Shown: piece by piece, positions 7,027 through 41,696 of the stretch
Position numbering within the stretch: the stretch's first letter is position 1
How the letters are laid out: each line of letters opens with the position of its first letter
DNA from: Gammaproteobacteria bacterium
GTDB lineage: Bacteria > Pseudomonadota > Gammaproteobacteria > Pseudomonadales > Cellvibrionaceae
Direction of reading: 5' to 3'
DNA: 64,000 nucleotides
Assembly (NCBI GenBank): GCA_004172865.1
Contig: SEBV01000003.1
Coordinates: 124,001-188,000, forward strand
The notes under the pieces: generated by a model
Told to the model about the DNA's origin: nothing
What the model saw: only the letters and a program-made list of their open reading frames with translations
Databases searched by the model: none
Made by a program: the position numbers and the translations under genes

Positions 7027-8151
7027 TTATTGATCGATTGGTTTAGGCTCTGTTTTAAAATCAGGCTGTGCCGTTTTACCAATAACAACAGCTTGACCGT
7101 TTGTTAATTTAAACGCACCAGCGCTCACAACTTGCTCACCTGCTTTCAAGCCATCTGCAATTTCAATAAAATCGCCGCGAGATTTACCTAAACGCACAAA
7201 TTGTTGACGCGCTTTCAAAGTACCTTTTTCTTTGTCTTTATCGATAATAAAAACAGTATCACCGAAGGGTGCGAAAATAACGGCAGTGGTAGGAACGGTT
7301 AACACTTTTTCTGGATTGGACAACGTAACGCGAGTTTCCACAGCCATACCAGGAATGAATTGATTACCCGCATTCTCAAGTGACGATTGCACAGTCGCAT
7401 TACGAGTCGCTGCATTAATATCTGCACCAACAGCAGTAACCTCACCTTTCACAACATTATTAGAGCCATCGCCTAATTGAACTGTGACAGGTAAACCTTT
7501 GGTCATTTTTACCAACCAAAATTGCGGAACGGGGAAATTAACACGAACGCGATTTGTTGCCTGCAACGATACAATTTGTGTGCCGACTGGCAAGTCTTGC
7601 CCGAGGTCAACTTTACGAATACCAAGACGGCCATCGAACGGAGCTTTAATCACTTTTTTATCGAGCGTTGTTTTCAAGTTATCAACATCGCCTTGCGCTG
7701 ATGCTTTTTGTTGTAATGCAGTATCAAGTTCATTTTGCGATACGGTATTTTTTTTGCGCAATTGAACCATGCGGTCATAATTTGCATCGGCAAATTTTAA
7801 ACGTGCGCTTGCGGCACTTAATTGCGCAGATTCATTACCAGACTCCTGAATAAGAATCACAGTACCTGCTTTAACTTGCTCGCCAGATTTAAACAGAATT
7901 TTCTGCACCTTACCGGCAACTTCAGCTGAAATGTTAATGCCCTCATCAGCTTCAACGGTTCCCATTGCCGTAAATGTATTCGGCCAATCCTGTTCCACTG
8001 CCGTGAATGCACCTACGGTTTCAGGTGGAGGAACAAAACTTTTTCCCGCTTGAACAAGGGAAAATATTTGAGTGCCTTTAGTAGCGGCCAAAATTAAAAA
8101 TATAACTACTACTGCAACGATGGCAATGATGATTGATTTAGATTTACTCAT
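7027..8151 (-). CDS. RND efflux periplasmic adaptor (membrane fusion protein)
   Basis: Periplasmic adaptor that joins the RND pump to an outer-membrane channel. The 374-residue protein has an N-terminal membrane anchor (about residues 7-24) without a lipobox. A barrel-sandwich/lipoyl half begins around TVEADEGINISAEVAGKV, a short coiled-coil hairpin covers about 105-160, and the second lipoyl half (IKAPFDGRLGIRKVDLGQD) and a beta-barrel domain follow. These features match the MexH-like HlyD family. It is the promoter-proximal gene of the pump operon. No TetR/MarR/LysR regulator gene is adjacent, so regulation cannot be read from the context. Confidence 0.92.
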   Translation of the reverse strand: MSKSKSIIIAIVAVVVIFLILAATKGTQIFSLVQAGKSFVPPPETVGAFTAVEQDWPNTFTAMGTVEADEGINISAEVAGKVQKILFKSGEQVKAGTVILIQESGNESAQLSAASARLKFADANYDRMVQLRKKNTVSQNELDTALQQKASAQGDVDNLKTTLDKKVIKAPFDGRLGIRKVDLGQDLPVGTQIVSLQATNRVRVNFPVPQFWLVKMTKGLPVTVQLGDGSNNVVKGEVTAVGADINAATRNATVQSSLENAGNQFIPGMAVETRVTLSNPEKVLTVPTTAVIFAPFGDTVFIIDKDKEKGTLKARQQFVRLGKSRGDFIEIADGLKAGEQVVSAGAFKLTNGQAVVIGKTAQPDFKTEPKPIDQ

Positions 8152-8733
8152 TACAGAAGACCACCAATAAAGGATTGAAAGTTAAAAAATTATAAGGACG
8201 AATTGTGGCATATAGGTTGCCTAAACAAAAATTCACAAATGTCACTAAGTGCAAATTGGTCGCATGACTACTGACATAAACGGGAATATGTATTTAACTT
8301 CACACGACTTCGCATGAACAACTCATGCTCAAAAAAAGATCAAAGCCAGAGAACACCTATTAAAACCTGCACATTTTTTGCACAAAAAGTAGATTGCTTT
8401 TTCCCTGACCAGACAGATCAAATACCTGTCGAAGACTCAGGATAGCTGTATATCGGCCTCTTATAACTGTTTTCGTCGATTAAAATATTCAACGCACTCT
8501 TTATAGCCTGCAATTTTATAACCAGTCGTTTCAAAAGCCTGCATAATAGCCGCACTATATAAAATCACTTAAGTGCCAAAATTCGACCCGTGAGTCTTAC
8601 CAATAAATAGTGATAATAAATGGTTGCAGCAGCAATCCGGCCTCAACTCATTCGATTTACTAATTTTGATATAAACCTGTGACGCACTGATGTCGCGCCA
8701 GGTTGATGTTAACAAAAATAACAAGATTACTTT
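8152..8733. other. 582-base intergenic region between divergent genes
   Basis: The stretch separates the minus-strand efflux adaptor from the plus-strand GGDEF-EAL gene and must hold promoters for both. It is AT-rich. I see no convincing coding frame, tRNA, riboswitch core or strong palindrome. The octamer AGCCTGCA occurs twice near 8505-8540, which may be chance. A small RNA cannot be excluded by eye. Confidence 0.5.
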
Positions 8734-10638
8734 ATGCACAAATTATTATTGCGTCAGCTTCAACAGCATTGTGAAAATGCTGGCCTGGAATATTCTCAAC
8801 AACCGCTTTTACAAGCTATCTCTAACACTTATGAAGAACATGAGCTGGATAGAAAAGCGCTGGATGAATCGCTATTTCTGACTTCAAAAGAACTTAACGA
8901 ACGCACTCAACTACTACGCACCCAATTGCAAACCTTGAGTCAGATTCAGGATCAATTGCAAAAATCACTCACTGCGTTAAACGCTACCTTTGATGCGACC
9001 GGTGAAATTATTTTGTCGCTTGATAATCTTGGGCGCCTGGTGAAAAGCAATAAAATGGGCAAAGAGCTATTGCCTGAAATTGCAAAGTATGAAGGCCGGC
9101 AACAAGCCATCTCCTGGCAAAATGTTCACAAAATGCTGTTGAATCCGTGGCATCTAACTGAAATCGTCGATTCATTGCAGAAGCAGCCTAAAATTAATCT
9201 TAAGGGCACACTGCATTTTACGAATGGACGAATTTTTGAATATCACTCGCTACCGCAATTGCAAAATAATCTGTTGATTGGTCGCGTTTGGTGTTTGCGC
9301 GACGTAACAGAAGAGAAAAAAATTGAAGAATTTATTCATCACCAAGCCTACCACGATTTACTGACAGGTTTGCCTAATCGACATTTTTTACTTGAAAAAA
9401 TTGACGCTATTATTAAGGACAATCCTGAGAAGGATAAAAAGCTCGCCGTCATTTTTATTGATCTGGATAACTTCAAAAAAGTAAACGATACCGATGGCCA
9501 TGAAGCAGGCGATAAATTGTTACGCATTGCAACTAAACGTATGCGCAATTGTGTCCGTGATGGCGATATTCTAGCGCGTTTAGGCGGCGATGAATTTTTA
9601 ATTCTAATCGAGTCCCCTATTTCGCAATCCGGTTTAACACGCATGTGCTCCAATATATTGGACACACTAAAAAAGCCATTCTTGCTAAATAACCACAACC
9701 ATTTTATTAGCTGCAGTATGGGAATCAGTATTTATCCCCGCGACGATACTGTGCCAGATGGACTCATTGGCAAAGCTGATATGGCGATGTATCGCGCTAA
9801 AAAACTGGGCAAAAATAATTTTCAATTTTATAGCGAAGAATTGGAACGACTTGCATTGCACCAATTAGAATTTGAAAACAATTTGCGAGTTGCCATTAAC
9901 AAGCAGCAAATAAGCATTCAATTGCAGCCCGAAATAAATATAACCACTGGAAAAATAGTCGCTGCAGAAGCATTGGCCCGCTGGACTATGGCAGATGGAA
10001 CCGTAATTCCTCCCACCCAATTTATTCCAGTTGCGGAACAAGCTAATTTAATTGGCGAAATTGGCCGTCTTGTTTTTGATAAAGTTTGTAAGGAAATATC
10101 ACGCTGGAAACGACATGGTATTAACGATATTACGGTCGCTATCAATTTATCTGCACGTGAATTTAAAGATTCGGAGTTGGTGAATAACATTCACCGAAAA
10201 ATGTTAGAACACGCAATTGATGGTGAAAAAATAGTACTGGAAATTACTGAATCACTCTTTATGGAAGATAAAGAGAGCGTGCTGCGAACCATGAACCAAC
10301 TGCGCGATATTGGAATTCGGTTTGCTATTGATGATTTCGGAACTGGTTATTCGTCTTTCAGCTATTTACAAGATTTGCCGATTGATTACTTAAAGATTGA
10401 TCGCTCATTTTTAATTGGTGTTACCGAAAACAAAAAGAAGTATGCAATTGCACGCAGCATTATCGACATTGGAAATCATTTGGATTTAAAAGTGATTGCT
10501 GAAGGAATTGAAGATCAGGAGACATTAGATTTTATTATTAGTAATCAATGCGCGATGGCTCAGGGATTTTTTATGCACAACCCTTTATCCACTGACGATT
10601 TTTTTGCGCTGTTAATCAAAGATCGAGCTACTAAGTAG
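8734..10638 (+). CDS. GGDEF-EAL cyclic di-GMP turnover protein
   Basis: A 634-residue cytoplasmic protein with both c-di-GMP synthase and phosphodiesterase domains. The N-terminus (about 1-90) is a helical module resembling that in front of some histidine kinases and cyclases; a PAS-like domain follows (about 95-195). The GGDEF domain has an intact active site GGDEF at 284-288 and an I-site RDGD at 275-278, five residues upstream as in feedback-inhibited cyclases. The EAL domain has EAL at 412-414 plus the conserved LEITES, DDFGTGYSS, LKIDRSF and AEGIED motifs. Both activities are therefore possible. No membrane segment is visible. No clear ribosome-binding site precedes the ATG. It is probably a single-gene unit, convergent with the Anbu cluster. 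Confidence 0.92.
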   Translation: MHKLLLRQLQQHCENAGLEYSQQPLLQAISNTYEEHELDRKALDESLFLTSKELNERTQLLRTQLQTLSQIQDQLQKSLTALNATFDATGEIILSLDNLGRLVKSNKMGKELLPEIAKYEGRQQAISWQNVHKMLLNPWHLTEIVDSLQKQPKINLKGTLHFTNGRIFEYHSLPQLQNNLLIGRVWCLRDVTEEKKIEEFIHHQAYHDLLTGLPNRHFLLEKIDAIIKDNPEKDKKLAVIFIDLDNFKKVNDTDGHEAGDKLLRIATKRMRNCVRDGDILARLGGDEFLILIESPISQSGLTRMCSNILDTLKKPFLLNNHNHFISCSMGISIYPRDDTVPDGLIGKADMAMYRAKKLGKNNFQFYSEELERLALHQLEFENNLRVAINKQQISIQLQPEINITTGKIVAAEALARWTMADGTVIPPTQFIPVAEQANLIGEIGRLVFDKVCKEISRWKRHGINDITVAINLSAREFKDSELVNNIHRKMLEHAIDGEKIVLEITESLFMEDKESVLRTMNQLRDIGIRFAIDDFGTGYSSFSYLQDLPIDYLKIDRSFLIGVTENKKKYAIARSIIDIGNHLDLKVIAEGIEDQETLDFIISNQCAMAQGFFMHNPLSTDDFFALLIKDRATK

Positions 10639-12370: not shown

Positions 12371-13318
12371 TCAAGCAGCGCGCATAGGCATTAAAAAGTC
12401 ATGGCTTATCCGCATGCCAAGGTCGTAAATACGGTTCTGGAATTTTTCCAAGTAAGGATGCAAACCCTCTTCTAAAATTTCATCTATTTTTACATAGCGC
12501 AATTGCGCACTTAATTGACCTGCTAAACGCTGAGTTTCATGTGAATGCTGGTTAGCCAATTTCTGCAGCATGGATTCCACTTCAGTCATGCAGGTTGTTA
12601 ACGATCTCGGCAATTCAGAATGCGTGATTAATAATTCAGCCACTTTATTTGGAAGAACGCTATCGCGATAAACCCGGCGATAAATTTCAAATGCCGACAC
12701 CGAACGCAATAATGCTCCCCATTGATAATAGTCAGCTGCAATGCCTACAGGTTCCCCTTCAGCAATTAAGTAATATTTCACATCCAACAATCGTGCCGTA
12801 TTGTCGGCGCGCTCTAGGTAGGTACCTAATCGGATAAAACAAAAGGCATCGTCGTGCAACATGGTGCCGAAAGTAACGCCGCGTGAAAGGGAGGATCGTG
12901 TTTTTACCCATTCAAAAAAGCCGGAAAACTCTTCATCTTGCAATTTTCTGTTGCTTACATTGAGCATTTCCAACCAAGTCGAATTTATGGTTTCCCACAT
13001 TTCTGAGGTCAAAGTTCCGCGAACCGTGTGTGCATTTTCACGCGCGGCTTTTAAGCATGAATAAATTGACGATGGGTTATGTGCATCAAAAACCATAAAC
13101 GCCAACACGTTCTCAGCGCTGACTTCAGGATAACTTTTTAAATAGGCAGGTAATTGATCGTTGCATAAAAGTGCAGCTTGCCAATTGCGACTCGCACTCT
13201 CCGCCGATTGCGGAGCCAGGGAAGTTTGCCAGGTAATATCTAATAAACGCGCAATATTTTCTGCGCGCTCAATGTAGCGTGCTAACCAAAATAAATGATC
13301 CGCAGTGCGTGATAACAT
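12371..13318 (-). CDS. alpha-E domain protein (COG2307)
   Basis: An all-alpha protein of the alpha-E family, which almost always occurs beside, or fused to, a circularly permuted ATP-grasp protein. I place the start at the ATG at 13318, giving 315 residues beginning MLSRTADHLFWLARYIERAEN, the usual family N-terminus, with GGAG six bases upstream. The longer frame to 13333 would need a TTG start and would include this ribosome-binding site in the coding region. The Arg/Glu-rich pattern (RYIERAENIARLL and a second YLERADNTARLLD copy) is typical. Biochemical function is not established; a helper role for the ATP-grasp ligase is inferred from constant gene linkage. Confidence 0.88.
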   Translation of the reverse strand: MLSRTADHLFWLARYIERAENIARLLDITWQTSLAPQSAESASRNWQAALLCNDQLPAYLKSYPEVSAENVLAFMVFDAHNPSSIYSCLKAARENAHTVRGTLTSEMWETINSTWLEMLNVSNRKLQDEEFSGFFEWVKTRSSLSRGVTFGTMLHDDAFCFIRLGTYLERADNTARLLDVKYYLIAEGEPVGIAADYYQWGALLRSVSAFEIYRRVYRDSVLPNKVAELLITHSELPRSLTTCMTEVESMLQKLANQHSHETQRLAGQLSAQLRYVKIDEILEEGLHPYLEKFQNRIYDLGMRISHDFLMPMRAA

Positions 13319-23616: not shown

Positions 23617-24432
23617 ATGTTTGCTGAAGAATCACAGGTAATGAATTTTTTTCATGTACATGTTCTGCCTTGGTCGTTAAAGGTTGCCGTCTCTCTCACA
23701 ATATTTATTGTGGGCCAGATTATCGCAAAAATATTGAGCGGAATGATTGGCAAAATTTTGGGCCACACCAAGCTCGATAAAATTTTAATTAATTTTTTGC
23801 AATCGCTAGTACGCGCGCTGCTTCTGGTTATGGTGCTGGTTGCCGTGTTAGATAACCTTGGTGTTAATACCAACTCCCTGATCGCTATGTTAGGCGCTGC
23901 AGGTTTAGCAATTGGTTTGGCTTTGCAGGGCTCACTGCAAAATTTTGCAGCCGGGTTTATGTTGTTAATTTTTCGCCCGTTCAAAGCTGGGGATTTTGTT
24001 GAAACCGCGGGTACGTCTGGTATTATCGATTCAATCGGGATTTTTTCTACCCGACTTTACACTGGTGACAATAAAGAAGTGATCATTCCCAACGGATCAA
24101 TTTATAGCAGCAATATTATTAACTACTCATCACGTAAAACTCGCCGTATTGATATGATTTTTAGCGTGGGTTATGGCGATGACATTCGTCTCGCGAAAGA
24201 AATTATTTTGCAAGTTATCGCCGACGAAGAGCGTGTATTAAAAGAACCTGCGCCCGATGTAGCGGTGGGCGAATTGGCGGCCAGTAGCGTTAATTTTGTG
24301 GTGCGCCCTTGGGTGAAGGCTGAAGATTACTGGGCGGTTAGATTTGCGCTCAATGAGAAAATTAAACTGGCGTTTGACAGCAACCAAATTACTATCCCCT
24401 TTCCACAAATGAACATAAACGTACAAAAATAA
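23617..24432 (+). CDS. small-conductance mechanosensitive channel, MscS family
   Basis: Inner-membrane channel that opens under hypo-osmotic membrane tension. Three N-terminal helices end in the pore-lining TM3 with the Gly/Ala pattern GAAGLAIGLALQGSLQNFAAG, followed by the RPFKAGDFVE beta-domain entry and a C-terminal alpha/beta vestibule. I choose the ATG at 23617 (271 residues), which has GAGG six bases upstream; a TTG at 23605 would add four residues and swallow that site. Length is close to E. coli MscS. It lies 14 bases after rsxE and before a strong terminator, so it is probably co-transcribed with the rsx operon. Confidence 0.92.
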   Translation: MFAEESQVMNFFHVHVLPWSLKVAVSLTIFIVGQIIAKILSGMIGKILGHTKLDKILINFLQSLVRALLLVMVLVAVLDNLGVNTNSLIAMLGAAGLAIGLALQGSLQNFAAGFMLLIFRPFKAGDFVETAGTSGIIDSIGIFSTRLYTGDNKEVIIPNGSIYSSNIINYSSRKTRRIDMIFSVGYGDDIRLAKEIILQVIADEERVLKEPAPDVAVGELAASSVNFVVRPWVKAEDYWAVRFALNEKIKLAFDSNQITIPFPQMNINVQK

Positions 24433-24466
24433 AAAAAGCCGACTCATCCTGAGTCGGCTTTTTTTA
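24431..24466. terminator. bidirectional rho-independent terminator
   Basis: Eleven-base arms AAGCCGACTCA and TGAGTCGGCTT with loop TCC, flanked by an A-run and a T-run. It ends the rsx-mscS unit on the plus strand and the degenerate AAA+ gene on the minus strand. Confidence 0.92.
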
Positions 24467-24488
24467 TACTCCTTCAAAAATTTTCCTA

Positions 24489-25700
24489 CTAATCCTTGAG
24501 CAAAGGCTCTAATAAACTTGCCGATATAAGTGGTTCATCGGCAATCAATGCAACTTTTTGAATAACACGTTTCAGTTGATCTACATTTTCACGCCAACTG
24601 AATGATTCCAATAATTGCCACGCGTTTTCAGTAAAATCAAACGTTGTGGAAAGTGTGTAGTCATGAATAAAAAAGCTAACCAAATCTCGCAAATCTTCAC
24701 GTCGTTCAGCTAAGTCCGGCAGTACCAGTTCAACCGTATTTTCCTTTAACCAATCAGTAAGCTCTGGTTTATTTGCATAGTGTTTACGGCTCACCGAAAA
24801 CATCATTCCCACCGATTCAGATGAACCTTTAACGATTAACTCTTGTTTTATCGTGTCGCAAAATCGCTGCAATACCCTTAGATTGTCCGCCGATAAACTA
24901 TCAATATTACGTAAATATAAAGTGCCGCCTTTCGCGTAAGCATAGAGCGATTGCAAAATACTGGCAGCGGCACCCTGTTGCCACTCATTACAAGAGGACT
25001 CAATAAACGGCAGAATGCCTTTGTGACGGGAGCAATGCACACTGCGAGCGGCGATACTTTTACCCGTGCCTTTATTTCCGCGAATCAAGATCGGCTTTGA
25101 AACGTCTTTTAACTCTTCGATGCGTTTATCCAACTGACGCAAGGACGCGCTATTCCCAATCCAGTAACTCTGGTCACCATAAATAAATATCGCACGATAA
25201 CGAGTTTGGTAGCGCGTAATAATGGAACCAAGCTCATTTGCGACGCCATGCAGCTCTGCTTCAATTGCACGTGGTGATGGTTTGGTGGATTGCTCGGTAA
25301 ATTCGTTGGGCAAGGTAGCCAAAATATAACCCATGCGCTGCCCTTGATAATCCAGAGATACCGACATACTTTCCAGATTGCTAAAACGTTCGTTCGCCGG
25401 TGTAAGCGAATCTTCGTTAGAAATAATGATTTCTTCGTGGCTCCCCAAGGCGCCACCGGTGCTGTCCAAATCGTCACCTGTGAGCAATAAATGACGATAA
25501 CCCTGATGCGTTATGCACCGTAGAATCACCGAAATATTGGTGACGCCGATTCGATCAGCCGCAGCATGCAGAATAATTTTCGCGAGCGTAATAAAGCTTT
25601 GATTGAGAGGTACCCATTTCGCACCTGACTGCTCATCAAATGCGTATACCGCTTTCGCCACAGGTTTATTAGATTTTGGCGCTTGAAATATTGAGATCAT
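24489..25700 (-). CDS. degenerate sigma54-activator-like AAA+ protein
   Basis: A 403-residue protein with an N-terminal GAF-like sensory region (about 20-165) and a C-terminal AAA+ domain like that of NtrC-family activators. The Walker A motif GNKGTGKS is intact (208-215). The segment that should carry the sigma54-contacting GAFTGA loop is missing between SCNEW and AKGGTLYL. The Walker B region reads LYLRNID where active members have LFLDEI. There is no Fis-type DNA-binding domain after the AAA+ lid. Classical sigma54 activation is therefore unlikely; a scaffold or ATP-sensing role is possible. GGAG precedes the ATG. It is divergent from the FHA gene, with two perfect palindromes between them. 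Confidence 0.75.
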   Translation of the reverse strand: MISIFQAPKSNKPVAKAVYAFDEQSGAKWVPLNQSFITLAKIILHAAADRIGVTNISVILRCITHQGYRHLLLTGDDLDSTGGALGSHEEIIISNEDSLTPANERFSNLESMSVSLDYQGQRMGYILATLPNEFTEQSTKPSPRAIEAELHGVANELGSIITRYQTRYRAIFIYGDQSYWIGNSASLRQLDKRIEELKDVSKPILIRGNKGTGKSIAARSVHCSRHKGILPFIESSCNEWQQGAAASILQSLYAYAKGGTLYLRNIDSLSADNLRVLQRFCDTIKQELIVKGSSESVGMMFSVSRKHYANKPELTDWLKENTVELVLPDLAERREDLRDLVSFFIHDYTLSTTFDFTENAWQLLESFSWRENVDQLKRVIQKVALIADEPLISASLLEPLLKD

Positions 25701-25723
25701 TCGTAGGACTCCGGGAGGATGCT

Positions 25724-25741
25724 ATTCTCCGAATGGAGAAT
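25724..25741. promoter_or_regulatory. palindrome in the divergent promoter region, first site
   Basis: Arms ATTCTCC (25724-25730) and GGAGAAT (25735-25741) around GAAT. It lies 24 bases upstream of the degenerate AAA+ gene, next to its ribosome-binding site, and is a candidate regulator site or mRNA leader hairpin. Confidence 0.5.
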
Positions 25742-25753
25742 CCCTGCATAGAC

Positions 25754-25770
25754 TTATAAGGTCCTTATAA
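25754..25770. promoter_or_regulatory. palindrome in the divergent promoter region, second site
   Basis: Perfect arms TTATAAGG and CCTTATAA around a single T, about 13 bases from the first palindrome. Its position between the two divergent genes makes it a good operator candidate, perhaps for the winged-helix FHA protein encoded next door. Confidence 0.55.
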
Positions 25771-25918
25771 ACGAGTGAAACCTCGTCTAGACTGTGGCAC
25801 TCTATGGTTTATTCCAAAACTTGCCTATTACGCGGCATTACACGACAGCTTATGAGCTATAGTGGATTCAATCGAATACAGGGATCGCGCGTTTACTACA
25901 CCCATTAACCCTGTGTGC

Positions 25919-26914
25919 ATGATTTATATGGCTTACATTTTTAACACTGCTACCGGTAGCTACATTGCTTTAGCGCCGCACCATACCTTTGGTCGCCTCG
26001 CAAATTCCGTCGATACCCAAATCGACAAGCCTTATGTATCCAAATTGCATGCGGCTATCGAATGGAACGGCAAAGACTGGCGAATTAAAAATCTCGGTTT
26101 GAACGGGACTTGGCTAAACAGAAATAATTTGGCTGCTAATGAATCTCTGGCGCTGCGGGTTAATGATGAGTTTCATTTGGCGGAGTTAAGTGATCCCAGT
26201 TTTAAAGTTCTAGATTTAACACCACCTGCGGATATGTTATGGCCGCTGGATGTTGCACCTGGCGCATTGCCCCAACCTATTTATCTAACGCGTTACCACC
26301 TTTTACCGGATAGCAATACACCAGAATTAGCCATTTATTTCGATGAACAGGGCCAGCAATGGCATCTTGAAACGCTCAACGCGCAACAAGAGCATCAGTC
26401 TCGTGAACTAAATGAAGGTGGATTAGTAAAACTAGGTGATAACCGCTGGAAACTTATTCGCGCGCAGGTCTACGGCCCTACAGAGGTTCACGCTTATCCG
26501 GTTCAGCAACTAAATGATATGGAATTTCTATTTAATCTCAGTCTTGATGAGGAAAGCACTCAACTCGAATTGGTGAGCAAGCAGCAAAAAGTGGATTTGG
26601 CAGTGCGCAATCATCATTACCTGCTCGCGCACCTGGCACGCCACCGCGCTGCCGATGCAGCACGAGGGTTGGACAATAAAAGCCAGGGCTGGATTTACAC
26701 TGATCAACTGGCAAATGAATTAGGGTTGGATGCAACCCATATGAATATTTATATTTTTCGTCTACGTAAACAAATCGCTGATAGCATTCCGGCCCTACTA
26801 GGTTTGCAATATTTACTAGAGCGTCGCGGTGGTAAAATTCGTTTCGGATGCGAAAAATTTAAAATCTACAAAGGCGCTGCACTCACCTTGCAGTCGCCGC
26901 ACTTAATCGCGTGA
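25919..26914 (+). CDS. FHA domain protein with C-terminal winged helix
   Basis: A predicted phosphothreonine reader fused to an OmpR-like DNA-binding domain. The N-terminal FHA domain shows the conserved FGR, SKLH and LNGTWLN motifs that form the phosphopeptide pocket. The middle (about 100-215) is unassigned. The C-terminal ~100 residues contain an OmpR-type winged-helix pattern (WIYTDQLANELGL and IYIFRLRKQI, ending in a wing at RRGGKIRFG). I choose the ATG at 25919 (331 residues); a second ATG at 25928 is equally possible, and a GTG at 25862 gives a longer, less plausible N-terminus. No clear ribosome-binding site is seen. The Ser/Thr kinase gene follows after 38 bases, suggesting kinase-to-FHA signalling. 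Confidence 0.82.
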   Translation: MIYMAYIFNTATGSYIALAPHHTFGRLANSVDTQIDKPYVSKLHAAIEWNGKDWRIKNLGLNGTWLNRNNLAANESLALRVNDEFHLAELSDPSFKVLDLTPPADMLWPLDVAPGALPQPIYLTRYHLLPDSNTPELAIYFDEQGQQWHLETLNAQQEHQSRELNEGGLVKLGDNRWKLIRAQVYGPTEVHAYPVQQLNDMEFLFNLSLDEESTQLELVSKQQKVDLAVRNHHYLLAHLARHRAADAARGLDNKSQGWIYTDQLANELGLDATHMNIYIFRLRKQIADSIPALLGLQYLLERRGGKIRFGCEKFKIYKGAALTLQSPHLIA

Positions 26915-26952
26915 CATAGGCTCAATGCCATAGATATAAGTTTGACGAACGA

Positions 26953-29232
26953 ATGAATCAATTGCCGCAGCAACAGGCTGATATTACCCAAATAGCGCAC
27001 TATTCCATTCTTAGCTGCATAGGCCGCGGCGGCATGGGATTGGTTTACCTTGCGCGCGACACGCGGTTGGATCGTCAAGTAGCCATAAAATGTTTACGTG
27101 CAGAATTATTTGAACCGCACTATCGCGAGCGATTTAAACGTGAAGCACTTTTACTCGCTAAATTAAATCATCCGCATATTGTTCAAATTTACGATTACGT
27201 TGAAACCGACACGCAACTTGCGTTGGTAATGGAATATGTAAATGGACAGAATCTTCAGCAACATTTGCGTGAACATATAGTACCTATTACACAACGTATG
27301 CAATGGCTCACGCAAATTGCGCAAGGTTTAGCCGTTGCGCACGACGCTGGAATTATTCACCGCGATTTAAAAACTGAAAATATTTTAATCAACCAACACA
27401 AGCTCGCCAAAATTTCCGACTTGGGTATTGCGAAATCGCAGGATTTTAATGCGACACTTACCGATCACGTAACTGGTAGCTACGCCTCAATGTCACCCGA
27501 ACAAGCCATGGGTGAAGCGATTGATTTCCGCAGTGATTTATTTTCCTTTGGCATTCTTGCTTACCAACTTTTGTGCGGCGCGCATCCTTTCGGTGAAGCG
27601 GAAAACAAACTGCAAATCATGCAGCGAATTATTTCGCACCCCCCTATTTCGCCCACCAAAAATAATCCTGATTTACCGCCGGAAGCGGTAGAACTCTTAG
27701 GGCAACTATTAAGCAAAAATCCAGATAATCGCCCCGCGAAGACGCACTGGGTAGCAGCGCAGTGTGAAAAGCTTTATCAATGGTTTCTTGCCAATACCAA
27801 AGTAGATGAGGACCATACACAGGCTTTGCATAACACGAGCCAGTCAGGCATTCGAACAAATCCCAGCAGAAGCAATACTCAAGAACACCCTACTTTTGAA
27901 ACGCAGATTTTAAAAAAATCAGCGCCTTTATCAATGAGGATAAAAGCGTACCTTCGCAACAATATTACAACCCTTGCAGTATTCAGCTTGATTGTTGTTG
28001 CACTTGCAGGTGCTTTGGTTTGGAAGCTGCAGCCGCCAAAAATAGATAACGACATAGCTGCAAAAGAATCCACAGAACCTTATTCGCAAGCGCGAGAATT
28101 TAATAAAGGAATTGAAGCGCTCAAGCTGTTTGATCGCCCTGGCAGTTTAGAAGCCGCAGAGAAGAGCTTTAACACAATTCTCGCCCACACCTCAGACAAC
28201 GCGGCGGCTGTCGCCGGCTTATCCTTGGTTTACAGCCACAAATATATCGGTGACAACGAAGATACTATTTGGATTCAAAAAGCAGATGCAAGTGCGCAAC
28301 AATCATTGAAACTAAACTCGCAACTTGCACTCGCTCACGCTGCATTGGGGCAAGTATTTACACTCAAATCCGAGCATGAGAAAGCTTTTGCAGCTTTTGA
28401 GAAAGCACTTGCACTTGAACCCACAAATATTTTTGCATGGCGAGGCAAAGCGTCCGCATTCCGCTCGGCACAACGTTATGACGAAGCAATCCAACTTACG
28501 CAACAAGGCCTGAAACAATTTCCCCAAGAACGTTATTTCGCCGACATGTTAGGTGCCATCTATATAGAACAGAATAATTTCGCAAAAGCGGAAACGGCAT
28601 TCCGACTAAGTATTAATTTACAACCCGATGCTGTGAATGCCTATGCGGGCCTCTATATGGTACTGCAACAACAAAACCGCTTAGACGAAGCCATGCAAAT
28701 CCTGCAACAGGGACTACAAATACGTTCCAGTGCACCACTACATGGAAATCTAGGAACGGCATTATTCAATAAAGGAGATTATGTGGGTGCGGCGGCTTCA
28801 TTTGAAGACGCTGTATCACCCAATAAAGGAAACCCAAATAGCCACCTCGCTTGGGCGAATTTAGCAGACGCTCTACTTTGGATCCCCGGGCGCGAAGCTG
28901 AAGCAAAAAAAGCCTATCGTAAAGCGATTGATTTGTTAACACCGCTACTGGAACGCAGAAAAGATGATGTCACACTGATTTCGCGCAAGGCACTTTATCT
29001 GGCGCGAGTGGGAGATAGCGCACAAGCAAAACCTTTGTTAGTGCGTGTAATTGCGCTTGCACCAAAGAATGCTAATGTTAATTTTCGTGCAGGTTTAGCG
29101 TATGAGTTATTAGGCGAACGCAATTCGGCTGTGGCAACACTCACCCAAGCAGTCGAACTTGGTTACCCATTAAAGCTTATTCAAGCGGAGCCTGACTTGT
29201 TAGAGTTACGCCGCGCAAGCGGTAATTTCTAA
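26953..29232 (+). CDS. membrane Ser/Thr protein kinase with TPR C-terminus
   Basis: A Hanks-type kinase of 759 residues. The kinase domain (about 16-280) has the glycine loop GRGGMG (24-29), ATP-binding Lys46 in VAIK, the catalytic loop HRDLKTEN (136-143), a DLG in place of DFG, and MSPEQA at the end of the activation segment. One transmembrane helix follows at about 339-358. The remaining ~400 residues form tandem TPR units (for example ALAHAALGQVFTLKSEHEKA and AKAETAFRLSINLQPDA). The TPR part would be periplasmic if the kinase is cytoplasmic. It lies between the FHA-winged-helix gene and a small unknown gene in what looks like one operon. The FHA protein is the natural candidate substrate or reader. 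Confidence 0.9.
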   Translation: MNQLPQQQADITQIAHYSILSCIGRGGMGLVYLARDTRLDRQVAIKCLRAELFEPHYRERFKREALLLAKLNHPHIVQIYDYVETDTQLALVMEYVNGQNLQQHLREHIVPITQRMQWLTQIAQGLAVAHDAGIIHRDLKTENILINQHKLAKISDLGIAKSQDFNATLTDHVTGSYASMSPEQAMGEAIDFRSDLFSFGILAYQLLCGAHPFGEAENKLQIMQRIISHPPISPTKNNPDLPPEAVELLGQLLSKNPDNRPAKTHWVAAQCEKLYQWFLANTKVDEDHTQALHNTSQSGIRTNPSRSNTQEHPTFETQILKKSAPLSMRIKAYLRNNITTLAVFSLIVVALAGALVWKLQPPKIDNDIAAKESTEPYSQAREFNKGIEALKLFDRPGSLEAAEKSFNTILAHTSDNAAAVAGLSLVYSHKYIGDNEDTIWIQKADASAQQSLKLNSQLALAHAALGQVFTLKSEHEKAFAAFEKALALEPTNIFAWRGKASAFRSAQRYDEAIQLTQQGLKQFPQERYFADMLGAIYIEQNNFAKAETAFRLSINLQPDAVNAYAGLYMVLQQQNRLDEAMQILQQGLQIRSSAPLHGNLGTALFNKGDYVGAAASFEDAVSPNKGNPNSHLAWANLADALLWIPGREAEAKKAYRKAIDLLTPLLERRKDDVTLISRKALYLARVGDSAQAKPLLVRVIALAPKNANVNFRAGLAYELLGERNSAVATLTQAVELGYPLKLIQAEPDLLELRRASGNF

Positions 29233-29275
29233 ATCACGTAATGAAGTTTTACAGTCACTTACTAAAGGATTCAAC

Positions 29276-29668
29276 ATGACCAAATATTTATTTACTCTTT
29301 TATTTCCCAAAAGCATTGACGCAAGCCTAGTCACCCAAGTAAATTTTCAGGTTACGGGTGATCCAGCTCTTGAGCCACCGTTACCCCAAGATAAAATGCC
29401 TGCGCAAATTAACGTAGGTGACACCCTTACTTTTACCTACCAACAAGCTAATCCTAATGTACAAATGAGTAGCTGCTTGTTAACTCAATTTAACATCGAT
29501 ACATCACAAAAAGAGACAGACCTAGACTTTACCGATGACTTTGATAAACCTATTACAGTAACCGACTCGTGGGTAGGGTCTTGGGTATTCCACTTATTGG
29601 GAATGTATAAAGTCAACGACACGAATGCCGCATTTTATCTTGACCCTGAAGCAACCTTCCATCCTTAA
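29276..29668 (+). CDS. small protein of unknown function downstream of the kinase
   Basis: A 130-residue soluble protein that I do not recognise. It has a strong AAAGGA ribosome-binding site six bases before the ATG and starts 43 bases after the kinase stop, so it is probably expressed with it. The sequence is rich in Thr, Asp and aromatic residues in alternating patterns and looks like an all-beta fold. It has no signal peptide, membrane segment or obvious catalytic motif, and a single Cys. An acidic stretch (TDLDFTDDFDK) and a WVGSWVF stretch stand out. It could be a kinase substrate or effector; this is only inferred from position. Confidence 0.72.
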   Translation: MTKYLFTLLFPKSIDASLVTQVNFQVTGDPALEPPLPQDKMPAQINVGDTLTFTYQQANPNVQMSSCLLTQFNIDTSQKETDLDFTDDFDKPITVTDSWVGSWVFHLLGMYKVNDTNAAFYLDPEATFHP

Positions 29669-29731: not shown

Positions 29732-31012
29732 TCAAACCTGAAAACTCTTAATTAAAAGAGAGTCGTCATCCAGTTTTTTACAAACTTGCTCAATCAAATC
29801 ACCTGCATTAAAAATCGCACTGCTCTTATTCACATCCGCCGCATAATGCTTCAGCGCTTTCGAGGTTTTAGCTTTCTGCAACATATTGCCAATCATTGGA
29901 GCAACCTGCTCCGCTTTAAATTTCTCTGGCATTACGTAAGTGCCTAAACCTAATTTATAAATGCGATCCGCATTGTCAGGTTGGTCATACTTAAGTGGAC
30001 GAATCAATTGCGGAATGCCTGCTTTAATCGCTTGTGCAGTCGTGCCTATTCCACCGTGATGGATAATCGCCAGGGCTTTTGGTAAAGCATATTCAAAATC
30101 TACATAGCCCATATGCGTACACAAGTTAGAACCCTGTAAGAATTCAATGCCGCTATTGCCGCCTACAAATAATCCCGGCACTTGCAATTGCTCGCAGATT
30201 TTTCGCCCTTCTTTAAACAAGTCTTCAACATCTTTTACGCCTGTGCCAGAGGTAAAAATAATTGGTGCCCCGTGCTGTTCGATAAACGTATCTAATTCAG
30301 TTCGGCTGGTGTTATTAGCATGATTCAGCAAAGGAAAGCCCACCAGCTTTATATTTTTTGGCCAGTCCTTCGCGCGCATTCCAAACCACTCTGGAAAAAA
30401 ACCTATCTGTAATAGCGGCGTGGATTTGCTACGGAATTTTAACGGGCAATTTACACGCTCACGTGCAGCTCTGTATTCGGCACTATGAGGTGAGCGGCAA
30501 AATCGATTAAATTTTGCTTTACGATTTCGCCGCAATAAAAAACGCATAACAAATGGAGGAATATAGGAAGGAATTACCCAACTCGTGGGTGCGGGAGGAC
30601 TAAATGCTGAAAAAATAATATTGGGGGATAGAATAAATTCGACAACAGGAATATTGAATTTTTCTGCCGCTACTCTTGCTCCGTTTTCTTCACCCAAGGA
30701 CAGCACTACTATATTCTGGCCCGCTAAATTTTTTACATACTCGAACGCTGGCTCAAATGCAGGGGCGTGGTAGTGCTCAAAATTATCGGTGCGGTTAGTG
30801 CGTTCCCAAGCTTCGGGAGTATTGCCCTTATGGTATTGCTCGATAGTGCCGACTGAAACAAATTCAAAACCAGCGGCTAAAATTCTCGGTTTAAAATAAT
30901 CGTTCGATAAAAATGCAACTTCATATCCACGTCGCTGTAATTCTAATCCGACTCCAACCATAGGGTCGATGTCGCCACCAGTTCCTAGCGCATAGATTAT
31001 TATTTTTAACAT
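29732..31012 (-). CDS. UDP-glycosyltransferase-like protein (GT1/GT28 fold)
   Basis: A 426-residue GT-B glycosyltransferase of the type that glycosylates lipids, sterols or natural products. The N-terminal acceptor domain starts with the typical GTGGDIDPMVGVGLELQRRG. The C-terminal donor domain has the signature HHGGIGTTAQAIKAGIPQL followed by DQPDNADRI, which binds the nucleotide sugar. No signal peptide or membrane span is evident. It starts 18 bases after pyrB on the same strand, so it is probably transcribed from the pyrB promoter. Acceptor and sugar cannot be read from sequence. Confidence 0.87.
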   Translation of the reverse strand: MLKIIIYALGTGGDIDPMVGVGLELQRRGYEVAFLSNDYFKPRILAAGFEFVSVGTIEQYHKGNTPEAWERTNRTDNFEHYHAPAFEPAFEYVKNLAGQNIVVLSLGEENGARVAAEKFNIPVVEFILSPNIIFSAFSPPAPTSWVIPSYIPPFVMRFLLRRNRKAKFNRFCRSPHSAEYRAARERVNCPLKFRSKSTPLLQIGFFPEWFGMRAKDWPKNIKLVGFPLLNHANNTSRTELDTFIEQHGAPIIFTSGTGVKDVEDLFKEGRKICEQLQVPGLFVGGNSGIEFLQGSNLCTHMGYVDFEYALPKALAIIHHGGIGTTAQAIKAGIPQLIRPLKYDQPDNADRIYKLGLGTYVMPEKFKAEQVAPMIGNMLQKAKTSKALKHYAADVNKSSAIFNAGDLIEQVCKKLDDDSLLIKSFQV

Positions 31013-40385: not shown

Positions 40386-41696
40386 ATGAATTTTGCTTCT
40401 CTGGGCCTCGCACCCGAACTATTACATGCCATTAAAGTCATCGGCTACCAACAGATGACGCCGATCCAGCAACAGGCAATTCCAGTGGCGCGTCGCGGTA
40501 GCGACATGCTTGCCACCGCACAAACTGGAACCGGCAAAACTGCTGCCTACGCCCTACCGCTATTGCAACAAATGGTCGATAAGCCCAAAACACCAGAACC
40601 TTTCAACGCCCGCATGCTTGTACTTGCACCCACACGCGAGCTGGTGCAACAAGTGGCAGAGAGTATTCAACAACTCTCGCAGTTTCTGAATTTTAAAGTA
40701 GCGACCGTGTATGGCGGCGTAAAAGTGACGAGTCAGGCAAGTAAACTGCGTTCAGGCGTGGATATTCTGGTTGCAACGCCAGGCCGATTGCTTGAACACG
40801 TTGAACTTGGCAATATCAATTTGGCTAAAGTGGAGTTCGCGGTTCTGGATGAAGCCGACCGCATGCTGGACATGGGTTTTGTGAACGATATTCATAAACT
40901 TCTCACCAGCATCGTCCGCAAACATCAAACTCTATTTTTCTCTGCCACCAGCTCCCCCTTGGTTACCAATCTAGCCAAACAAGCGATGAACAAGCCAACT
41001 ATCGTGGCCGTCTCAAAGCGCAATGCAGTTGCCGAAACTATCGAGCACGTGGTTTATCCGGTTGATGACGCGCGTAAGTATGAGCTGTTTGTCCACCTTT
41101 TGCGCTCGCAAAATTGGTATCAGGTGATGGCTTTTAGCAGTACGCGTGAGGAAGCTGACAAGCTTATCGCTGCACTGAAAGAAGATAATGTGGATGCTGC
41201 GGTTATTCACAGCGAAAAAACCCAAGGCTCGCGCCGCCGCGCCCTGCAAGATTTTAAAGATGGAAAATTACAGGTTCTGGTAGCCACTGAAGTTGCCGCG
41301 CGTGGTCTGGATATTCAGGGCCTGGATTTCGTGGTGAATTTAAATCTGCCGTTCTTCACAGAAGATTATGTTCACCGAATTGGCCGTACAGGTCGTGCCG
41401 GCGCAAAAGGCACCGCGATTTCATTGGTATCGCCCGCCGAAGAATACAAACTTACGTTGATTGAAGATTTGGTAGGCAGCAAAATTAAACGCGTGCGCGT
41501 GAAAGGTTTTGATGTCACCGAATCGCCACCGATCAATCAACGCAAAGTTCGCGCTACACCAGCTCCTAAAAAACCAGTGAGCCGCGCTGATTCGCCCGCA
41601 AAAGTTCGACGCGGTGCGAGTAAAACTGTAAACGCTCCTACGAAAAAGATTTACCCCAAAAAGCCAAGCTCAACCAAGCCAAGTACACCGAAATAA
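40386..41696 (+). CDS. rhlE: DEAD-box RNA helicase, RhlE-like
   Basis: ATP-dependent RNA helicase, 436 residues. The Q motif (GYQQMTPIQQQAIP), motif I AQTGTGKT, Ia PTRELVQQ, Ib TPGRLLEH, II DEAD, III SAT, V ATEVAARGLDI and VI HRIGRTGRAG are all present. The C-terminal ~60 residues are a basic, Pro/Ser/Lys-rich tail (PKKPSSTKPST) typical of RhlE-type proteins that act on ribosome assembly or mRNA decay. No ribosome-binding site is obvious. A strong terminator follows. The exact RhlE subgroup is inferred. Confidence 0.9.
   Translation: MNFASLGLAPELLHAIKVIGYQQMTPIQQQAIPVARRGSDMLATAQTGTGKTAAYALPLLQQMVDKPKTPEPFNARMLVLAPTRELVQQVAESIQQLSQFLNFKVATVYGGVKVTSQASKLRSGVDILVATPGRLLEHVELGNINLAKVEFAVLDEADRMLDMGFVNDIHKLLTSIVRKHQTLFFSATSSPLVTNLAKQAMNKPTIVAVSKRNAVAETIEHVVYPVDDARKYELFVHLLRSQNWYQVMAFSSTREEADKLIAALKEDNVDAAVIHSEKTQGSRRRALQDFKDGKLQVLVATEVAARGLDIQGLDFVVNLNLPFFTEDYVHRIGRTGRAGAKGTAISLVSPAEEYKLTLIEDLVGSKIKRVRVKGFDVTESPPINQRKVRATPAPKKPVSRADSPAKVRRGASKTVNAPTKKIYPKKPSSTKPSTPK

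What the first reader, a model, noticed from the sequence alone, without database searches (positions are those of the whole stretch)
24489..29668. Possible undescribed phospho-signalling module: degenerate bEBP, FHA-winged helix, TPR kinase and a small unknown protein
Four genes lie together: a phosphothreonine reader with its own DNA-binding domain, a membrane Ser/Thr kinase with a TPR half beyond the membrane, a small unrecognised protein with a strong ribosome-binding site, and, divergently, a sigma54-activator-like ATPase stripped of its sigma54 loop and DNA-binding domain. FHA proteins and Hanks kinases often pair, for example in type VI secretion control, but no secretion genes are here. 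A direct kinase-to-FHA-transcription-factor route, with the dead ATPase as partner, would be an unusual one-operon eukaryote-like signalling circuit.
Basis: partly seen in the sequence, partly recalled or inferred. Interest (0 to 1): 0.7.

Follow-up and report, generated by a model that had tools for sequence, protein, structure and literature searches.

The report
Kinase-FHA gene switch with swappable sensor
Next to each other in Cellvibrio bacteria lie a membrane Ser/Thr kinase and a phosphothreonine-reading protein that probably carries the kinase's signal straight to repeated ATTACA sites in the DNA, while the kinase's sensing half and a small partner gene appear to have been exchanged between species as one block.

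Summary
The four genes are real. ATPase-like gene, FHA regulator and kinase lie together in 21 of 21 genus (Cellvibrio) genomes examined (kinase cut by a contig end in one). FHA regulator plus kinase recurs in other bacteria. A direct repeat, ATTACA-N4-ATTACA, precedes the regulator gene in 21/21 Cellvibrio loci and, at 11-12 of 12 matches, in 36 of 77 distinct other loci (shuffles: mean 0.6, maximum 3); genomes with the regulator hold 56 exact sites in 11, those without 36 in 124. The small protein is one of two alternatives: a DP-EP protein takes its place in half of the genus, always with a different kinase TPR half. Two loci share 95% identical regulators and 93% identical kinase domains but 19% identical TPR halves. 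The ATPase-like protein is a pseudo-ATPase (Walker B lost, 20/20); two distant relatives elsewhere carry an AraC DNA-binding domain, sit in R-body gene loci and have the same repeat upstream. Best reading: an EmbR/PknH-like route from kinase to FHA transcription factor, of different architecture, with a predicted operator and an exchangeable sensor cassette. DNA binding, phosphorylation and the small protein's role are inferred.

The parts
24489..25700 (-). Pseudo-ATPase derived from sigma54 activators: N-terminal ~170 aa without a clear family match, AAA+ core, lid; no GAFTGA loop, no HTH
   Evidence: orthologue divergent from the FHA gene in 21/21 genus genomes; in the other 36 of 57 genomes the best match is E 3e-15, AAA+ core only in the rows shown; distant AraC-fused relatives in L150 and L314
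25793..25805 (+). Second conserved intergenic block, TGTGGCA(A/C)TCTAT; role unknown
   Evidence: seen in the 17 of 21 rows in which the stretch lies outside called ORFs (one row TATGGCA)
25827..25842 (+). Predicted operator: direct repeat ATTACG-CGGC-ATTACA (11 of 12), between the divergent ATPase-like and FHA genes
25928..26914 (+). FHA - middle beta domain - C-terminal winged-helix-type regulator (ORF open from GTG 25862; conserved start ATG 25928)
26953..29232 (+). Membrane Ser/Thr kinase: kinase domain aa 17-266, TM from aa 337, C-terminal TPRs
29276..29668 (+). Small protein S, 130 aa, no signal peptide seen by eye, beta-rich model; alternates with DP-EP proteins in the genus
29732..31012 (-). 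UGT-type glycosyltransferase, next gene of the S-type cassette
24429..24467 (.). Strong terminator-like hairpin between the upstream mscS-like gene (named by eye) and the ATPase-like gene

Best explanation
This is a one-locus phospho-signalling switch. The membrane kinase senses something with its TPR half outside the inner membrane and autophosphorylates on threonine (inferred). The FHA domain of the regulator docks on phosphothreonine of the kinase or of another kinase substrate (inferred; the FHA binding residues are conserved). This changes how the regulator's C-terminal winged helix occupies tandem ATTACA-N4-ATTACA sites, one of them between its own gene and the ATPase-like gene (site conservation shown, binding inferred). 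Further sites in the genome are a candidate regulon. The small protein (S here, DP-EP in sister species) is matched to the kinase's TPR half and is most likely its specificity partner or substrate (co-exchange shown, role inferred). The pseudo-ATPase is most likely a regulatory partner, a DNA-binding-less relative of AraC-fused pseudo-ATPases that sit in R-body loci elsewhere; it is not a working sigma54 activator.
For: Linkage of the first three genes in 21/21 genus genomes. Kinase within 3 genes of the regulator in 34 of 66 non-Cellvibrio loci with a regulator ORF, immediately downstream in 29, against 3 of 507 more distant ORFs. FHA residues G44, S60, H63, N81, G82 invariant in 35/35, R45 in at least 90%; EmbR with phosphopeptide is fold match 3. 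Operator: 21/21 Cellvibrio; 36 of 77 distinct other loci at 11 or more of 12, shuffle mean 0.58, max 3, reversed motif 1, gaps 2, 3 and 6 none, gap 5 six. Sites: 56 in 11 regulator-bearing genomes against 36 in 124 without (reversed pattern 6 against 29), Mann-Whitney p 1e-9. 71 of 80 fetched sites lie outside ORFs of over 100 codons, where such space makes up 20-22% of the same stretches. Sensor swap: FHA 95%, kinase domain 93%, TPR half 19% identical in L078/L079; DNA homology of L078 stops at kinase codon ~366 (against L079) or ~372 (against L087), inside or at the end of the TM (353-373), and resumes at the gene after the cassette. DP-EP: 11 of 11 hits in 57 genomes lie within 9 kb of the regulator; 15 of 15 in named non-Cellvibrio loci follow a kinase (two of these are loci already in the 57). 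Pseudo-ATPase: in L150 it is fused to an AraC HTH (8.3e-25) and stands beside FHA-kinase-DP-EP with an exact repeat at 13084-13099; in G420 the fusion gene lies apart from the two FHA-kinase loci yet has an exact repeat 155 bases upstream.
Against: 41 of 77 non-Cellvibrio regulators lack the repeat in the 400 bp upstream, and 32 of 66 have no kinase of this type within 3 genes. 16 of the 36 positive loci are Pseudoalteromonas and not independent; without them it is 20 of 61. One regulator-bearing genome (G068) has no exact site; 7 of 124 genomes without the regulator have 2 or more; the reversed pattern is also somewhat commoner in regulator-bearing genomes (p 0.002). The winged helix is not recognised at Pfam cut-off (best 0.016, 1 of 21 members), and profile comparison with OmpR-type domains barely beats column shuffles (21.8 against a best of 21.0 in 40). 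S and DP-EP show no signal peptide by eye although the TPR half should lie outside, which argues against direct contact. Co-exchange of neighbours can follow from one recombination tract without functional coupling; in the pair L091/L090 detectable homology already stops at codon ~274, before the TM.
Confidence: 0.62

Rival explanations
1. The regulator binds the ATTACA repeats, but the FHA domain acts mainly within the protein or on another partner, and the neighbouring kinase works chiefly on other substrates.
For: 32 of 66 non-Cellvibrio loci show no kinase of this type within 3 genes; the host genome has 7 Pkinase matches in 6 ORFs, this kinase included and one below the cut-off, so others could act.
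Against: Kinase immediately downstream in 29 of 66 loci and in all 12 named Cellvibrio loci (the same genomes as in the G set), against 3 of 507 distal ORFs; FHA binding residues kept in 35/35.
Confidence: 0.2
2. The ATTACA-N4-ATTACA repeat is the site of another regulator that controls the FHA gene and happens to occur in the same genomes, for instance the AraC domain of the fused pseudo-ATPase.
For: Binding is not shown; the motif also occurs near other genes; some genomes without the FHA regulator have several sites; in L150 and G420 it also precedes the AraC-fusion gene.
Against: Out-of-genus occurrence upstream of the FHA gene (36/77), enrichment in regulator-bearing genomes, 10-base tandem spacing as expected for OmpR-type domains (recalled), N295, R300 and R302 of the putative recognition helix invariant in 35/35; the AraC fusion is rare (own core match and G420 only, of 369 genomes).
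Confidence: 0.12
3. The ATPase-like protein is the real output: a GAFTGA-free regulator of the VpsR/FleQ kind, and the FHA protein is its adaptor.
For: Fixed divergent neighbour in 21/21 genus genomes; VpsR and FleQ are among its solved relatives; two distant relatives carry an AraC DNA-binding domain.
Against: No HTH in any of 20 Cellvibrio members; Walker B acidic residues replaced by R-N or R-S in 20/20; most FHA-kinase loci elsewhere lack it: my ATPase HMM hit 3 of 68 named non-Cellvibrio loci, and two of these (L171, L180) look like ordinary activators with GAFTDA and an intact Walker A.
Confidence: 0.08
4. A post-translational control module of the type VI secretion kind (PpkA/Fha) without transcriptional output.
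For: Kinase and FHA protein as neighbours; weak TagH hit (16.1 bits).
Against: TagH model cut-off is 120.25 bits; C-terminal domain of winged-helix layout and conserved operator.
Confidence: 0.04

Closest known systems
EmbR-PknH, Mycobacterium tuberculosis
   Same: Ser/Thr kinase and FHA transcription factor with an OmpR-type DNA-binding domain; the FHA domain is needed for phosphorylation by PknH (passages of PMC4601284); FHA sequence and fold match
   Different: EmbR order is DNA-binding, BTA, FHA; here FHA, beta domain, winged helix, with no BTA hit. For the TPR kinase, small partner and pseudo-ATPase I saw no counterpart in those passages
EspM, Mycobacterium marinum
   Same: N-terminal FHA domain and C-terminal HTH domains in a transcription factor (passages of PMC11005418)
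   Different: [quoted passage not shown] the word kinase does not occur in that paper's main text
bEBPs without a working sigma54 loop: VpsR, FleQ (PDB hits); Caulobacter NtrC (search listing of PMC10274813 only; its lack of GAFTGA is recalled)
   Same: AAA+ core of the sigma54-activator family with the sigma54 loop lost or altered (recalled for these three)
   Different: They carry their own DNA-binding domains (recalled); the Cellvibrio protein has none and has a ruined Walker B
DP-EP family, Pfam PF08985
   Same: Small protein of unknown function that takes the place of S beside the long-TPR kinases
   Different: S is not detectably homologous (hhalign probability 0.5%; iterated HMM misses it), though both have an invariant D-P near the C-terminus
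R-body (reb) loci
   Same: RebB genes stand beside both AraC-fused pseudo-ATPases and near an FHA regulator in L155
   Different: Regulators named in the passages I saw are RcgA and FecI2 (PMC8322103) and RebC, a sigma factor and a cyclic-nucleotide-binding protein (PMC3583457); FHA and kinase do not occur in either main text. No RebB gene was seen at the Cellvibrio locus; whole Cellvibrio genomes were not searched for it
T6SS Fha/PpkA
   Same: FHA protein and Hanks kinase together
   Different: TagH score 16.1 against a cut-off of 120.25

Membership tests
EmbR-type (SARP) kinase-linked regulator | FHA domain with phosphothreonine-binding residues | tested here: met
EmbR-type (SARP) kinase-linked regulator | Bacterial transcriptional activation (BTA) domain between DNA-binding and FHA domains | tested here: not met
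   No BTAD among the 18 families hit by 35 members at E 1; middle domain all-beta in the model
EmbR-type (SARP) kinase-linked regulator | Kinase-dependent phosphorylation and DNA binding | not testable with these tools
   Needs biochemistry
OmpR/PhoB winged helix (Trans_reg_C) | Sequence match to the family model | tested here: inconclusive
   1 of 21 members at E 0.016; hhalign 21.8 against a shuffle maximum of 21.0
OmpR/PhoB winged helix (Trans_reg_C) | Beta sheet, three helices, C-terminal hairpin | tested here: met
   DSSP of the model: E221-226, E233-238, E243-248, H251-267, H280-287, H291-308, then four strands; no domain-level fold search was made, and the 50 rows shown for the whole model are FHA matches or FHA-containing kinases
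Sigma54 activator (bEBP) | GAFTGA loop | tested here: not met
   Alignment A2 (20 of 21 Cellvibrio members) and alignment to the best PDB match 1ny6
Sigma54 activator (bEBP) | Intact Walker A and B | tested here: not met
   Lys214 kept 20/20; the Walker B acidic pair reads R-N or R-S in 20/20
Sigma54 activator (bEBP) | C-terminal Fis-type HTH | tested here: not met
   No HTH family among the 12 families hit by 20 members; protein ends after the lid
Hanks-type Ser/Thr kinase | Catalytic motifs | tested here: met
   HRDLKxxN and DLG (for DFG) in 20 of 20 full-length Cellvibrio kinases; VA(I/L)K by strict pattern in 18 of 20
DP-EP (PF08985), for protein S | Profile match | tested here: not met
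T6SS TagH/Fha | TIGR03354 above cut-off | tested here: not met
   16.1 bits against 120.25
T6SS TagH/Fha | T6SS structural genes nearby | not tested
   The window was not scanned for them

The most novel reading that the evidence does not exclude
A so far undescribed, widespread signalling family centred on Gammaproteobacteria: a Hanks kinase paired with an FHA-winged-helix transcription factor as a eukaryote-like counterpart of two-component systems, with its own operator (tandem ATTACA, 10-base period) and a genome-wide regulon that in some lineages takes in R-body loci. Its input side is modular: the periplasmic TPR half and a cognate small protein (S or DP-EP) are exchanged between species as one cassette at the membrane boundary, the small protein being the kinase's specific signal carrier or substrate. 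Pseudo-ATPases of sigma54-activator origin, with or without an AraC domain, serve it as co-regulators.
Probability: 0.3. Interest if true: 0.8.

Novelty: new variant of a known kind. Interest (0 to 1): 0.64.

Why it matters
Direct routes from a bacterial Ser/Thr kinase to a dedicated transcription factor are few; the standard case (EmbR) is mycobacterial. Here a second architecture appears across Gammaproteobacteria with a predicted DNA site, so that regulons can be read from genomes and the chain tested in cultured Cellvibrio or Pseudoalteromonas strains. The natural sensor swap gives ready-made chimaeras for asking what the kinases sense, ties the uncharacterised DP-EP family to kinases, and suggests a control route for some R-body loci.

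Tried and rejected
S as a fragment of the longer kinases: no S-like stretch seen in the C-terminal alignment. S as a divergent DP-EP: rejected at the level of profiles, though both have D-P near the end. Fold of S: the model is usable (pLDDT 75.7, pTM 0.70) but no PDB match is confident (best E 0.11, MakD of the Vibrio cholerae mak operon). Sigma54-type -24/-12 site in the block TGTGGCA: rejected by eye, the -12 part is missing. Solved-structure search with the C-terminal domain alone gave one match at E 1.9. Anti-phage kinase: the kinase hits PADLOC PD-T4-6 models (best 9e-77), as its kinase domain would; not pursued. 'Cellvibrio-only' for the pseudo-ATPase, which I had believed, was rejected when checking. 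Function of the regulon: targets are varied (GMC and other FAD oxidoreductases, tail-collar proteins, LodA, ferritin-like, SRAP, DEAD helicase), and apart from the R-body cases I could not name a theme. Literature, held library only: 'FHA domain' with winged helix, protein kinase, operon and Gammaproteobacteria 0 papers; FHA domain with Cellvibrio 1 paper, about T6SS in the passages seen; ATTACA with direct repeat and FHA 0; searches listed no paper that by title or abstract start describes this pairing; 'DP-EP family' 0, and the nine papers looked unrelated by title. Subscription papers are not held.


Full report
What is there. The window lies in a Cellvibrio-type genome of 5.25 Mb; contigs of its genus mates match named Cellvibrio records. 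The regulator's true start is probably ATG 25928, where the conserved MAY- begins. The three + genes are 38 and 43 bases apart; a strong terminator-like hairpin closes the gene upstream of the ATPase-like gene.

Conservation. In 57 related genomes the regulator has relatives in 31 at E 0.001, two of them weak, including all 21 of the genus. A full-length relative of the ATPase-like protein occurs in the 21 genus genomes (split in the draft G002), divergent from the regulator each time; in the other 36 the best match is E 3e-15. In 20 fetched genus loci the order ATPase(-)/FHA/kinase holds, one contig ending inside the kinase. Outside the genus, of 66 named loci with a regulator ORF, 34 have a kinase within 3 genes and 29 immediately downstream, sometimes two or three in tandem; distal ORFs of the same loci gave 3 kinases in 507. 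One further case sits beside a YcaO gene (L103).

The regulator. FHA binding residues are invariant or nearly so in 35 sequences; the fold search ranks EmbR with phosphopeptide third. The model ends in a domain of winged-helix layout, but I could not show this by sequence beyond doubt. The operator analysis supplies support. Between the divergent genes all 21 Cellvibrio loci carry ATTACA-N4-ATTACA with at most one mismatch. Taken to other genera, which had no part in defining the motif, the repeat is found upstream of the regulator at 11 or more of 12 in 36 of 77 distinct loci, 25 of them perfect. Shuffled sequences give 0.58 on average, the reversed motif 1, spacers 2, 3 and 6 none, spacer 5 six. 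A first pass on one strand only had given 15 of 80. Of the 36, 16 are Pseudoalteromonas; the rest include Pseudoteredinibacter, Oleispira, Marinicella, Marinomonas, Seongchinamella, Mangrovimicrobium, Psychromonas and Lysobacterales records (names). In an order-wide sample 11 of 135 genomes carry the regulator. They hold 56 exact sites against 36 in the other 124; the reversed pattern gives 6 and 29, itself slightly uneven (p 0.002). One regulator-bearing genome has none, and 7 of 124 without it have two or more. In 13 Cellvibrio genomes the looser pattern ATTAC-N5-ATTACA counts 175 against 35 for its reverse; in five genomes of the same call without the regulator it counts 11 against 7 (my sums). 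Of 80 sites looked at, 71 lie outside ORFs of over 100 codons, where such space makes up 20-22% of the stretches. A tandem repeat with a 10-base period is what head-to-tail OmpR-type dimers use (recalled).

The sensor cassette. Cellvibrio kinases come in two kinds. In 10 genomes, the window's included, the kinase is 757-773 aa and is followed by S. In 10 others it is 875-913 aa and is followed, on the other strand, by a DP-EP protein: nine pass Pfam's cut-off in the genome search, and the tenth, in G015, was grouped by BLAST with the others. In G011 other ORFs lie between kinase and DP-EP. The 21st genome is cut off. Of these 20 none showed both or neither. S-type TPR halves are 75% identical to one another on average and 16-22% to the other kind, although FHA proteins and kinase domains do not sort by kind: L078 and L079 share 95% and 93% there, but 19% in the TPR half. 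DNA homology of L078 breaks at kinase codon ~366 (L079) or ~372 (L087), in or at the end of the TM helix, and resumes 4.6 kb and 3.0 kb later at the same gene; in L091/L090 it already fades at codon ~274. So the outer half of the kinase, the small gene and one more gene (glycosyltransferase, or TonB-receptor-like by eye) were exchanged as a block. In 57 genomes all 11 DP-EP genes lie within 9 kb of the regulator, and in 15 of 15 named non-Cellvibrio loci with one, DP-EP follows a kinase (two of these loci are also in the 57). Adjacency alone could carry a neighbour along; the strict pairing argues for function. A puzzle remains: neither S nor DP-EP shows a signal peptide by eye, while the TPR half should lie outside.

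The ATPase-like protein. Its AAA core is of the sigma54-activator family; the best PDB matches are NtrC-family entries and VpsR. In 20 of 20 members the Walker A Lys is kept, the Walker B acidic residues are R-N or R-S, the GAFTGA stretch is gone and no HTH follows. While checking this report I found that the type is not confined to Cellvibrio. In Aestuariibacter halophilus (L150) a relative (32% over 245 aa) with the same Arg at Walker B is fused to an AraC-type HTH (8.3e-25) and stands beside FHA, kinase and a DP-EP-like gene, with an exact repeat between the last two genes and, next to it, RebB (R-body) genes. In G420 a second fusion lies in a RebB locus, apart from that genome's two FHA-kinase pairs, yet has an exact repeat 155 bases upstream. 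In 369 genomes of the class only the own genome and G420 matched the L150 protein at 1e-22. L155 has an FHA gene and RebB genes with two 11-of-12 sites before an AraC-type gene. This makes a transcriptional role for the Cellvibrio pseudo-ATPase likelier; I raised interest slightly (0.62 to 0.64) for it and left the other odds. It can hardly hydrolyse ATP in the usual way or open sigma54 promoters.

Mechanism and rank. Shown: linkage, motif conservation, motif-genome association, cassette exchange, residue losses. Inferred: DNA binding by the FHA protein, phosphothreonine docking on the kinase, sign of regulation, roles of S/DP-EP and of the pseudo-ATPase. The known model is EmbR-PknH, and this works like it, but by architecture it is not a member of that family. 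I therefore call it a new variant of a known kind.

Noticed in passing
L150 13214-16104; L314 166-9819; L155 9010-14774: R-body (RebB) gene arrays beside AraC-fused pseudo-ATPases or an AraC-type gene, with ATTACA-N4-ATTACA sites, in genomes or loci that carry the FHA regulator; a possible unknown control route of R-bodies.
   Followed up: partly
L103 (G041) 7792-10083; L279 (G083): The same FHA-regulator family sits beside a YcaO gene (L103, Pfam 1.3e-77; in L279 a 739-aa neighbour similar by eye); possibly a regulator of YcaO-type natural product loci.
   Followed up: partly
G034: L105, L107-L110: One genome with five copies of the regulator, several beside large proteins that look secreted by eye.
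   Followed up: no
L080 (G003) intergenic region: Three ATTACA copies in tandem at 10-base spacing instead of two upstream of the regulator.
   Followed up: no
L270 and L284: Exact ATTACA-N4-ATTACA sites precede tail-collar-domain proteins in two genomes of different families; one of 43 putative targets matches LodA.
   Followed up: partly
L084, L087 (S proteins); L102 10865-11446: Thr-rich low-complexity stretches (TKT/TKP repeats) at the N-terminus of S or inside a neighbour of the kinase; possible phosphorylation tails for an FHA partner.
   Followed up: no
window 25793-25805: TGTGGCA(A/C)TCTAT block about as conserved as the operator; perhaps the core promoter of the divergent gene.
   Followed up: no
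window 40421-40436: A second near-match (11 of 12) to the operator in the window.
   Followed up: no
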